The translations under genes were made by a program, and so were the position numbers. Positions 6,892 through 14,925 of a stretch of DNA of 64,000 nucleotides are shown here, piece by piece. The notes under the pieces are model-generated. The model was not told the DNA's origin. It saw only the letters and a program-made list of their open reading frames with translations, and made no database searches. Origin of the DNA: Manis javanica (Eukaryota; Chordata; Mammalia; Pholidota; Manidae). The stretch's first letter is position 1. Each line of letters opens with the position of its first letter. The stretch covers positions 116,342,173 through 116,406,172 of the forward strand of contig NC_133156.1 in assembly GCF_040802235.1 (NCBI RefSeq). Reading direction: 5' to 3'.

Positions 6892-6897
6892 CATCTC

Positions 6898-7231
6898 TGT
6901 TGGCAGCCGCGCTCAGAAAATAGCGCCCAATGCAGGGCAGCCGGAAGGCCCCGAACTTCCTAATGACAAATCATCCCACACCACTAAACTACATGCTAAT
7001 TGCGCCTTGGCATAAGGACCAATGAGACCCACCAAATTGTTATGCTAATAAGGCATATGGAGCCGCACCAACCAGGTCAGAGCATGAGAACTATATAAGC
7101 AAGCCTCTCCTTCCCCTCTAGGTCCTGCCCAACTCATTTGTTTCACAAAGAGCTGAAGAATAAAGCTTTCTGCAGAAGAATCCTGCTGTTGTTGCGTGCT
7201 GTTCTTGCTGGCGAGGACGGGGCGCGCGACA
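6898..7231 (+). repeat. 5' LTR of the provirus
   Basis: It starts TGTTGG and ends GACA, followed by two bases and the primer site. U3 holds a CCAAT box at 7019-7023 and a TATA box at 7092-7099 (tatataag). A polyadenylation signal AATAAA is at 7159-7164. Transcription should start near 7120, making R and U5 short. The copy at 14586-14919 is identical in length and differs at two positions. Confidence 0.95.
6993..7099 (+). promoter_or_regulatory. U3 promoter region
   Basis: Two copies of ATGCTAAT, an octamer-like motif, lie at 6993-7000 and 7042-7049. A CCAAT box lies between them (7019-7023), and the TATA box follows at 7092-7099. The same arrangement is present 7,688 bases downstream in the 3' LTR. 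Factor binding is inferred only. Confidence 0.5.
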
Positions 7232-7233
7232 AG

Positions 7234-7251
7234 TGGTGCCGAAACCCGGGA
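7234..7251 (+). other. primer binding site, tRNA-Phe
   Basis: The 18 bases tggtgccgaaacccggga are complementary to the 3' end of mammalian tRNA-Phe including CCA. They start two bases after the LTR, as expected for minus-strand primer binding. The same primer is used by IAP elements. Confidence 0.85.
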
Positions 7252-7401
7252 ACCAGAACATCACCGGCACAGGGAGGACCCTTCAGACATCTGGAGAGGA
7301 TTCAGAACTGCAGGTCAGAAGAAAACCCGGAGGGGTAAGTTCCGAGAGGCCCCTGCTTTTTAGGATAATGGTTGATGGTTCTCTGTAAATAAGGAGGCAC
7401 C

Positions 7402-12555: not shown

Positions 12556-14239
12556 GCCTATGCCTGTCCGTTTCAATGCAGCCGTTTTTCTGCGCTTTTT
12601 CACTACCAATGCTAGTATGAACTTGCCCTACTTAGTTAAAGACACCCTAGTAGCTCCCCTGGGAGAAAACCGATCCTTCGTAACTAATGGGTCATTATGC
12701 TTCACCACTCAGAATCTAGCTGGCTGTATCTCCCTGAAACGGAGGAAATACGGATGGTTCAGTGACATAATTCTAGAGGCCAGTAGCCTCCCCGTTATGT
12801 CAGCTAAATTTGAAGGGCCTAATAAGGAAGGGAGCCCGCCCTATAAGAACATGACTATCCACCAGATGGTTCTCTGGATCAATGGCACATTTGTACACTC
12901 TCCCAGGAACAATTCCACCAACAGGCCTCGTCAACCCAAATATGCCTCCCATTGTGTGGGCGACTATGAGGGAGAGCTGTGGCCCTGGACTGACTGTCAG
13001 TCAACTGTAGTAATGTGGGCAACTGAGAGGCAGGAGTTTACCATCTCCCCAGATATGGAGGGACGGCCAGCCAATGAGGCTTGGTGGCCAGTAAAGGTGC
13101 TCGAAGGCGAGTTTCGTCAGCAGCTGAGCATGAACCCCTTCCATAAATGGATGCTGTGTGGAGTCAATGGCTCGTGTATCGACCTCTCCCCCTTTTCCGC
13201 CCTCCAGGGTGGGGGAATCGGTGTAAAAAATATCACCTTTTGGTGCGAGAACAACCACACGCGCGCACACTGGAACATGACCATGACCCATAACAACAAG
13301 AACTACACGTGTTCAGCAAAATCAGGTCCAGAGTCACCTAATTCCCTTTTTCCACCTTCTCCAGTATGCGTATACCCCCCATTTCTGTTTATCTTATCCA
13401 ATAGTAGCTTTGACTCCTGCTCCAATGAAACCTGCTTTCTGTCTCAGTGTTGGGATGCGCGTAACTTTACCAATGCTTTGGTAGTCCGCATCCCCCGTTG
13501 GGTCCCTGTTCCCGTAGACGCCCCTAACACCATGACTCTGTTTCGAGAAAGGCGCGATTTCGGCGTTACAGCCGCCATAGTGCTCCTGATCTCCGCGACC
13601 GCGGTCGCAGCCACCGCCGCTGGTATAGCTTTAGACACCTCCATCAAATCGGCTACAGAGCTCAATAACCTTGCAGCCTCAGTAGCTTCTGCCCTGGACC
13701 AACAGTCCACACTTGATGGCAAACTGAAAGGAGGAATAATGATCCTCAATCAGCGCATAGACCTTGTAGAGGAACAAATGGAGGTGCTTTGGCAGATGGC
13801 CCAATTGGGATGTGAGCGGAAATATCGTGCTCTCTGCATCACTAGCATTCAATATGAAAATTTTACACGGGCAGCTAATCTGTCACGAGACCTGTCCCAG
13901 TATCTTTCAGGAAACTGGTCCCAAGACTTCGATGGGACACTAGAAGAGCTGCGGCGAGAAATAATCCACATCAACTCCACCCGTCTAGATATCTCCGTAG
14001 CAGAAGGACTCTCTTCCTGGTTCCTCAGAGCTCTCTCCCACATCAAGGAGTGGGCGGGCATGGCTGGGATGGGCGTGTTCATGCTTGGAGGTCTCATGCT
14101 CCTACTCTGGTTGTTATGCAGACTCCGCAACCAACATAAGCAGGACAAGGTGATCCTTGCTCAAGCCCTAATGGCGCTAGACGTTGGCACCTCTCCCCAA
14201 GTGTGGCTCAACATGCTTAAGAAGGAAGCTCGGCTTTAG
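12464..14239 (+). CDS. env: proviral Env glycoprotein, open
   Basis: This 591-residue open frame encodes the surface (SU) and transmembrane (TM) envelope subunits. A hydrophobic signal segment covers about residues 3-20. SU carries many N-x-S/T sites. A furin-type RERR lies at 361-364, followed by a hydrophobic Ala/Val-rich fusion-peptide-like stretch. TM has a C-x7-C at 450-458, as in betaretroviral Env, and lacks the gammaretroviral CX6CC. The membrane anchor is about 530-554 with a tail of about 37 residues. The start codon lies inside pol, so expression would need a spliced message. The frame is uninterrupted. In rodents, IAP relatives that keep env are called IAPE. Receptor and activity cannot be inferred here. 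Confidence 0.9.
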   Translation: MTSLYLLTLLLTLETPTQGVLRWGILSAFPKPMPVRFNAAVFLRFFTTNASMNLPYLVKDTLVAPLGENRSFVTNGSLCFTTQNLAGCISLKRRKYGWFSDIILEASSLPVMSAKFEGPNKEGSPPYKNMTIHQMVLWINGTFVHSPRNNSTNRPRQPKYASHCVGDYEGELWPWTDCQSTVVMWATERQEFTISPDMEGRPANEAWWPVKVLEGEFRQQLSMNPFHKWMLCGVNGSCIDLSPFSALQGGGIGVKNITFWCENNHTRAHWNMTMTHNNKNYTCSAKSGPESPNSLFPPSPVCVYPPFLFILSNSSFDSCSNETCFLSQCWDARNFTNALVVRIPRWVPVPVDAPNTMTLFRERRDFGVTAAIVLLISATAVAATAAGIALDTSIKSATELNNLAASVASALDQQSTLDGKLKGGIMILNQRIDLVEEQMEVLWQMAQLGCERKYRALCITSIQYENFTRAANLSRDLSQYLSGNWSQDFDGTLEELRREIIHINSTRLDISVAEGLSSWFLRALSHIKEWAGMAGMGVFMLGGLMLLLWLLCRLRNQHKQDKVILAQALMALDVGTSPQVWLNMLKKEARL

Positions 14240-14571
14240 CTTGAGGTAGCTCTTGCACCCTGAGCCCATGTGGCACTGCACCAGGCCCGAGTACCTCATT
14301 GCTTAATCACAGCTTTCTCTAAGAAGCTCATGGTGCAAGAGGGTTGAGAAAAAAGGTCCAAACCCTTTGTACCAAGCGGTCCCAACGCCAGCCAGAGGAT
14401 GCGAGGCAAAGCACTGCAAGAGGTCTTGGACCCCTCTGAGAGGCATGCCTGACTGCATAGGGGTAGATGCCCAGAACCCCTCTCCAAAAAGGGGGCATCA
14501 GGAAGTATGATGGAGGTCAGGCCTCTGTCTCCGCCTCTGCTGGCAAGTTCCGCCTTGAGCTTCTGTTAGAC
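14240..14571 (+). other. provirus region between env and polypurine tract
   Basis: About 330 bases without a recognisable reading frame. They may hold RNA export or packaging elements, but no such motif could be identified by eye. Confidence 0.4.
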
Positions 14572-14585
14572 AAAAAAGGGGGAGA
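14572..14585 (+). other. polypurine tract
   Basis: The purine run aaaaaagggggaga lies immediately before the 3' LTR. This is the standard plus-strand primer position. Confidence 0.9.
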
Positions 14586-14919
14586 TGTTGGCAGCCGCGC
14601 TCAGAAAATAGCGCCCAATGCAGGGCAGCCGGAAGGCCCCGAACTTCCTAATGACAAATCATCCCACACCACTAAACTACATGCTAATTGCGCCTTGGCA
14701 TAAGGACCAATGAGACCCACCAAATTGTTATGCTAATAAGGCATATGGAGCCGCACCAACCAGGTCAGAGCATGAGAACTATATAAGCAAGCCTCTCCTT
14801 CCCCTCTAGGTCCTGCCCAACTCATTTGTTTCACAAAGAGCTGAAGAATAAAGCTTTCTGCAGAAGAATCCTGCTGTTGTTGCGTGCTGTTCTTGCCGGC
14901 GAGGACGGGGCGCGCGATA
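14586..14919 (+). repeat. 3' LTR of the provirus
   Basis: It is 334 bases, matching the 5' LTR at all but two positions (14897 C versus T, and 14918 T versus C). The second change alters the terminal CA to TA. TATA is at 14780-14787 and AATAAA at 14847-14852. The target duplication catctc follows at 14920-14925. Confidence 0.95.
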
Positions 14920-14925
14920 CATCTC

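What the first reader, a model, noticed from the sequence alone, without database searches (positions are those of the whole stretch)
6892..14925. Young, nearly complete IAP/IAPE-like provirus in a non-rodent genome
LTRs of equal length (334 bp) differ at 2 positions (0.6%) and the 6-bp duplication is exact. At a typical mammalian neutral rate this implies an insertion roughly 1-2 million years old. The LTR ends, AATAAAGCTTT block, tRNA-Phe primer site and A AAA AAC shift site recall murine IAP, but the element keeps a Met-Gly Gag start and a full env, like IAPE. A recently active lineage of this kind outside rodents would be notable.
Basis: partly seen in the sequence, partly recalled or inferred. 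Interest (0 to 1): 0.85.

Follow-up and report, generated by a model that had tools for sequence, protein, structure and literature searches.

The report
Young IAP-type retrovirus in a pangolin
A retrovirus copy that landed in what is almost certainly a pangolin genome roughly one to two million years ago is a relative of the mouse intracisternal A-particle elements, with intact shell and envelope genes but broken enzyme genes; relatives of this kind were already known outside rodents.

Summary
Window 6892-14925 is a full-length class II provirus: two 334-bp LTRs differing at 2 positions, an exact 6-bp target duplication, an 18/18 tRNA-Phe primer site, an in-phase A AAA AAC slip site, open gag (585 codons, Met-Gly) and open env (591 codons). 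It is not coding-complete: the dUTPase frame is broken, and pro and pol each carry an in-frame TGA. The host is almost certainly a pangolin, most likely Manis javanica: env is 97% identical to two M. javanica proteins, and gag is 84-92% identical to M. pentadactyla proteins. Integrase, RT and Gag trees place it in the IAP-related group; Env falls in a clade whose named members are all Manis. LTR age is about 1.4 My (95% 0.16-4.9). Novelty is modest: IAP-like ERVs of Malayan pangolin are in print (PMC10776870), and IAP-like Gags turned up in five other non-rodent orders. A probable sister lineage in Chinese pangolin was published as Alpharetrovirus (PMC12584738); this element's integrase is 48% identical to MMTV's and 29% to RSV's, which speaks against that label for it. 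Copy number, solo LTRs and the empty site could not be tested: the genome search did not complete.

The parts
6892..6897 (+). Target-site duplication CATCTC, 5' copy
   Evidence: Read from sequence, identical to 14920-14925
6898..7231 (+). 5' LTR, 334 bp, TG...CA, TATATAAG at 7092, AATAAA at 7159
7234..7251 (+). Primer binding site for tRNA-Phe, 2 bases after the LTR
   Evidence: 18/18 match to recalled mammalian tRNA-Phe
7402..9159 (+). gag, open, 585 codons, MGN start, p10, p24 and two zinc-knuckle domains, PPPY at residue 219
9012..9018 (+). Candidate gag-pro slip site A AAA AAC, in gag phase
   Evidence: the -1 frame opens into dUTPase; no RNA fold signal downstream
9018..9925 (+). pro region: dUTPase, protease and G-patch; broken by a change of reading frame between about 9205 and 9237 and a TGA at 9494
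   Evidence: protease piece 9497-9925 hits RVP and G-patch
9916..9922 (+). Candidate pro-pol slip site G GGT TTT, in pro phase; its -1 frame is the pol frame
9904..12555 (+). pol: RT, thumb, RNase H, integrase; interrupted by a TGA at 10663
12464..14239 (+). env, open, 591 codons, RERR cleavage motif, CX7C and no CX6CC in TM (beta-type)
14572..14585 (+). Polypurine tract AAAAAAGGGGGAGA abutting the 3' LTR
14586..14919 (+). 3' LTR, 334 bp, TG...TA
14920..14925 (+). Target-site duplication CATCTC, 3' copy

Best explanation
One locus of a young, env-bearing, IAP-related class II endogenous retrovirus family of pangolins (Manis, most likely M. javanica). It works, or worked until recently, like an ordinary betaretrovirus-like element: an LTR-driven RNA is primed by tRNA-Phe; Gag is made in excess and two -1 frameshifts give Gag-Pro and Gag-Pro-Pol; a Met-Gly Gag goes to the plasma membrane, and a beta-type Env allows re-infection of the germline. 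This copy inserted roughly 1-2 My ago and its pro and pol are now broken, so it could move again only with help from other copies; its gag and env could still be expressed. Shown here: anatomy, breakage, family placement, near-identical relatives in Manis, low LTR divergence. Inferred: frameshifting, membrane targeting, re-infection as the way of spreading, and an ancestral entry into pangolins from a rodent-centred virus pool.
For: Anatomy. Env 97% identical to M. javanica P0123 and P0124; gag 92% (over 60% of its length), 88% (83%) and 84% (61%) identical to M. pentadactyla P0178, P0176 and P0180. Integrase: 12-row clade with mouse IAPs, 96/95; identity 70-71% to two mouse-type rows, 48% MMTV, 29% RSV. 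Second pol piece: 23-row clade with mouse IAPs, SH-aLRT 99. RT: IAP-type clade of 19 rows, 81/85; HERV-K RT 53%. Gag: pangolin clade 100/99 inside a 25-row clade with the hamster IAP, 100/99. Env: 13-row clade, 7 of 7 named rows Manis, SH-aLRT 100. Age 1.36 My at 2.2e-9 per site per year. SU 45-60% against TM 77-89% identity to the non-javanica Envs of that clade. Mouse IAPE as a model of an env-bearing infectious progenitor: PMC3197615 (section 4).
Against: No genome-wide copy count, no solo-LTR count and no ortholog or empty-site test could be run (ten unanswered calls, see Tried and rejected). Two LTR differences give a wide age interval (0.16-4.9 My), and LTR gene conversion could make it look younger. 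An open env of this age could be a passenger; no dN/dS was done. The flanking DNA was not matched to any pangolin assembly. RNA folding after the first slip site gave no signal (z 0.01). Several trees are quick or moderately supported, and many rows have no host name.
Confidence: 0.85

Rival explanations
1. It is a mammalian alpharetrovirus, as PMC12584738 classed ERV-Alpha-Mpen, the probable sister lineage of Chinese pangolin.
For: That paper's RT tree groups ERV-Alpha-Mpen with Alpharetrovirus, while its Gag, Pol and Env trees put it between alpha and beta. The lineage shares the tRNA-Phe primer site, dUTPase and G-patch with this element.
Against: Integrase identity 48% to MMTV and 29% to RSV, 70-71% to mouse-type IAP rows. 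PDB scores: MMTV-type integrase 265 bits, RSV-type 124 (virus names of the entries recalled). TM has CX7C and no CX6CC; alpharetroviral TMs carry CX6CC (PMC3758190 passages). The paper's main text contains neither 'IAP' nor 'intracisternal'. No alpharetroviral RT was available to me for the RT tree.
Confidence: 0.03
2. It is an older insertion whose LTRs were homogenised by gene conversion, so the 1-2 My age is too low.
For: Conversion between LTRs is known in general (recalled). A frameshift and two nonsense codons sit in an element with only two LTR differences.
Against: The target duplication is exact, and gag and env are fully open (585 and 591 codons). Some of the damage may have been copied from the parent element. 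ERV-Alpha-Mpen loci gave similar ages, 1.41-3.47 My (PMC12584738).
Confidence: 0.08
3. It spreads as an intracellular retrotransposon like mouse IAP, and the open env is only a young passenger.
For: The most successful families in mouse lost env and altered the Gag N-terminus (PMC3197615 section 4). An env 1-2 My old can be open by chance of youth.
Against: Gag keeps the Met-Gly start; env ORFs of the family are many in the databases (72 and 18 member sequences for P0123 and P0124, which are not genome copies); SU is far more diverged than TM among pangolin Envs.
Confidence: 0.2

Closest known systems
Mouse and hamster IAP (intracisternal A-particle elements)
   Different: Keeps Met-Gly Gag and an open env; integrase about 70% identical to two mouse-type rows; host is a pangolin
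Mouse IAPE (IAP-related elements with an envelope)
   Same: env-bearing, beta-type TM, Met-Gly Gag; works like IAPE as described in PMC3197615 (section 4 read)
   Different: No row in my trees is labelled as the mouse IAPE reference, so direct membership was not tested; the nearest rodent Envs are about 40-50% identical over most of their length
ERV-Alpha-Mpen of Manis pentadactyla (PMC12584738)
   Same: Pangolin class II ERV with tRNA-Phe primer site, dUTPase, G-patch, gag-pol-env, LTRs in the ERV2 group near a M. javanica Dfam LTR, age 1.41-3.47 My
   Different: Published as Alpharetrovirus; said to lack the Cys-His box and PPPY that this gag has. That it is the same lineage is likely but unproven: coordinates are in supplements I could not read
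MMTV and HERV-K(HML-2)
   Same: Class II pol and two-cysteine beta-type TM
   Different: Integrase 48% (MMTV) and RT 53% (HERV-K) identical; both branch outside the IAP-type rows

Membership tests
Class II (betaretrovirus-like) ERV | gag, dUTPase-protease, pol with thumb and C-terminal IN domain, env between LTRs, in successive -1 frames | tested here: met
   Pfam domains, frames and slip-site phases; frameshifting itself not tested
IAP-related group | Pol groups with named IAP sequences and apart from MMTV, HML and alpharetroviruses | tested here: met
   Integrase 96/95, second pol piece 99 SH-aLRT without distant outgroup; RT weaker, 81/85
IAP-related group | Gag groups with a named IAP Gag | tested here: met
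   Same 25-row clade as the hamster IAP, 100/99, midpoint root; the pangolin-Rattus grouping within it is weak, 81/52
IAP-related group | tRNA-Phe primer site | tested here: met
   18/18 (tRNA recalled)
IAP proper (intracellular form) | env lost and Gag N-terminus altered | tested here: not met
   env open and Gag starts MGN; criterion from PMC3197615 section 4
IAPE | Beta-type Env: two-cysteine TM motif, no CX6CC | tested here: met
   CERKYRALC, no CX6CC; scheme from PMC3758190 passages
IAPE | Env groups with the mouse IAPE Env | tested here: inconclusive
   Sister to rodent Envs in a 27-row group, SH-aLRT 99, but no row is labelled as mouse IAPE
IAPE | Infectious, env-dependent particles | not testable with these tools
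Alpharetrovirus | Pol closest to RSV/ALV; CX6CC TM | tested here: not met
   Integrase 29% to RSV against 48% to MMTV; no CX6CC; RT against an alpharetrovirus not tested
Recently active family in the host | Many near-identical copies, solo LTRs, empty alleles | tested here: inconclusive
   97-98% relatives of gag, pol and env found; genome copy search did not complete (ten calls)

The most novel reading that the evidence does not exclude
Asian pangolins host a still-active, env-driven, IAPE-type retrovirus family whose envelope surface subunit has diversified like that of a circulating virus; it was acquired from a rodent-centred pool in one of about six order-level jumps of IAP-like viruses, and part of it has been mislabelled in print as a mammalian alpharetrovirus.
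Probability: 0.3. Interest if true: 0.6.

Novelty: new member of a known kind. Interest (0 to 1): 0.38.

Why it matters
The textbook account of IAPs (an infectious, env-bearing ancestor that became an intracellular retrotransposon) rests on the mouse. An env-bearing IAP relative in pangolins, with a young insertion and an open env, offers a second host in which that change can be watched or shown not to happen. The Gag tree also suggests that IAP-like viruses crossed between mammalian orders several times. And the result bears on a published claim: a pangolin lineage reported as widening the Alpharetrovirus host range to mammals is more simply read as an IAP relative, if it is the same lineage.

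Tried and rejected
Rodent host: no B1 or B2 and no ID element in the 64 kb, and the closest env relatives are Manis; rejected. Horse, camelid, carnivore, ruminant, pig and primate SINEs were also not found. All SINE sequences were recalled, so this screen excludes only well-marked young SINEs; the row labelled CHR_cet hit three stretches that look like old L1 (recalled) and is not a SINE result. Two old MIR pieces were found.

Viral contig collection: no match for Env, Gag or the second pol piece. Rfam at gathering scores and the tRNA scan: nothing in the window. RNA structure after the first slip site: no better than shuffled sequence (z 0.01); pseudoknots not modelled.

The frame stop at 9203 first looked like a third nonsense codon; translating the -1 frame of gag showed that the lesion is a change of reading frame inside dUTPase instead. 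HMGCS1 was first suspected to be a processed pseudogene; tblastn shows separate exons. CCL28 was not found in the window.

Full report
What is there. The provirus spans 6898-14919 with the 6-bp duplication CATCTC on both sides. The LTRs are 334 bp each and identical at 332 positions. One difference is in the terminal dinucleotide (CA in the 5' copy, TA in the 3' copy); it most likely arose after integration, because integrase works on CA ends (recalled). An 18-base primer site for tRNA-Phe lies 2 bases after the 5' LTR, and a polypurine tract, 14572-14585, abuts the 3' LTR. gag is open for 585 codons and begins Met-Gly-Asn; it has p10, p24 and two zinc-knuckle domains and a PPPY motif. A AAA AAC at 9012 is in gag phase, and the -1 frame from it opens into dUTPase. 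A second candidate site, G GGT TTT at 9916, is in pro phase, and its -1 frame is the pol frame. env is open for 591 codons, with a RERR motif and a CX7C, not CX6CC, loop in TM; by the scheme in PMC3758190 (passages read) that is a beta-type envelope.

What is broken. The dUTPase reading frame changes register between about 9205 and 9237: its N-terminal part is in one frame, the rest in another. A TGA interrupts pro at 9494 and another interrupts pol at 10663. This copy cannot make its own protease precursor or full-length polymerase in the usual way. Uninterrupted gag, pol and env reading frames exist among close relatives in the databases (P0174, P0003, P0123); that they lie together on one copy was not shown.

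Host. Env is 97% identical to two Manis javanica proteins on chromosome-scale contigs (P0123 over its whole length, P0124 over 77%). Gag is 92%, 88% and 84% identical to three M. pentadactyla proteins over 60%, 83% and 61% of its length; two of these are named 'IgE-binding protein-like', a name that comes from IAP gag (recalled). No rodent SINE was found. M. javanica is the best guess; a sister Asian species is not excluded, and the flanks could not be matched to any assembly.

Family. In the integrase tree (36 rows) the window piece lies with mouse IAPs in a 12-row clade (96/95) inside an 18-row clade (100/97); MMTV and RSV fall outside, but both are long branches. Integrase identities are 98% to P0003, 70-71% to two mouse-type rows (P0005, P0011), 48% to MMTV and 29% to RSV. 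The RT tree (42 rows) agrees with weaker support (81/85); HERV-K RT is 53% identical. The second pol piece (61 rows: the window and 60 kept at 88% redundancy out of 94 that passed the length filter, of 120 listed hits) gives the same kind of clade (23 rows, SH-aLRT 99). The Env tree (48 rows: the window and 47 of 51 hits, four hits fused to other proteins or gag-bearing left out by me) puts the window in a 13-row clade with SH-aLRT 100: two M. javanica, five M. pentadactyla, five unnamed rows and the window, so all seven named rows are Manis; the nearest outside rows are rodent or unnamed.

Cross-order pattern. A careful Gag tree of the capsid-nucleocapsid part has 52 rows: the window, 44 named and 7 unnamed of 120 listed hits. 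Of the 63 hits that I had labelled by species, four (all M. pentadactyla) failed the length filter and fifteen, mostly from genera already present, were left out by choice. Seven orders are named. The label Rodentia needs six changes, and starred branches force six. Pangolins, whales and mouse lemur each form one lineage; colugo, shrew and elephant shrew are single rows. The simplest reading is repeated entry from a rodent-centred pool, and PMC4637884 (passages) also names rodents as important reservoirs of class II ERVs. But the root was the midpoint, rodents are heavily sampled, some rows may be misassigned or contaminated, and direction cannot be read from the counts. The nearest named rodent Gag is Rattus (76% over this part), yet the pangolin-Rattus grouping is weak (81/52).

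Age. Two differences in 334 bp at 2.2e-9 per site per year give 1.36 My, with a Poisson 95% range of 0.16-4.9 My; rates of 1.5e-9 and 4.5e-9 give 2.0 and 0.67 My. It is much younger than the split of the two Asian species that the paper quotes (about 16.4 My), so the site should be empty in M. pentadactyla. That was not testable here.

Mode of life. Three facts favour spread by re-infection over purely intracellular copying: the Met-Gly Gag; the open env with sizeable clusters of relatives (72 and 18 member sequences for P0123 and P0124, database members and not genome copies); and SU at 45-60% against TM at 77-89% identity to the non-javanica Envs of the clade (for P0143 the TM could not be compared). 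Against it: an env this young would often be open even as a passenger, and no selection test was done. The model is mouse IAPE, an infectious env-bearing progenitor of IAP (PMC3197615, section 4 and passages).

Literature. PMC10776870 (section 16 and passages read) reports that ERV genes closest to mouse and hamster IAP are 19% of the differentially expressed ERV genes in Malayan pangolin skin and gives 11% for IAP in the pangolin genome. PMC12584738 (parts 1-3 of 5 and section 15 read; supplements not read) describes ERV-Alpha-Mpen (n = 1 to 13) and 19 solo LTRs in M. pentadactyla, calls it Alpharetrovirus on an RT tree, grants that its position is ambiguous, and has no occurrence of 'IAP' or 'intracisternal' in its main text. 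Its listed features fit the present lineage, except that it says the Cys-His box and PPPY are missing; so identity with this lineage is likely, not proven. PMC3758190 (passages) says IAPs occur in various mammals and that IAPs with a gamma-type env colonised guinea pig and shrew. PMC4643047 (passages) concerns a pangolin gammaretroviral ERV and does not bear on this one. I saw no paper describing this env-bearing IAP lineage in M. javanica among the listings; those lists are capped and the library holds open-licence papers only.

Verdict. A real, young, structurally complete but coding-damaged IAPE-like provirus in a pangolin: a new member of a known kind. Its interest lies mainly in the likely misclassification in print and in a second host in which to study env-bearing IAP relatives.

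Noticed in passing
48822-56493 (+): Exons of the HMGCS1 gene (nine tblastn pieces covering most of the human protein, 54-98% identity; human protein recalled), on the same strand as the provirus, whose 3' end lies 33.9 kb upstream of the start codon.
   Followed up: partly
P0125, P0126, P0127, P0129, P0130 (pangolin-clade Env proteins): SU and TM differ sharply in divergence: for instance P0125 and P0126 share 54% of SU but 93% of TM, which suggests fast SU evolution or exchange of SU between lineages.
   Followed up: partly
P0007: A mouse-IAP-like Pol protein is filed under Trypanosoma congolense; it sits with mouse IAP rows in the tree, so contamination from a mouse host is the likely reason.
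   Followed up: no
23560-24087, 31629-32010, 53065-53586: Three repeats 74-83% alike that look like old L1 3' regions (recalled); no young SINE family was recognised in the 64 kb.
   Followed up: no
1451-1620 and 2008-2171: A pair of inverted repeats, 83-86% complementary and 387-533 bases apart, not identified.
   Followed up: no
34721-35433 (-): Two overlapping ORFs of 131 and 207 codons with no Pfam family above its cut-off.
   Followed up: partly
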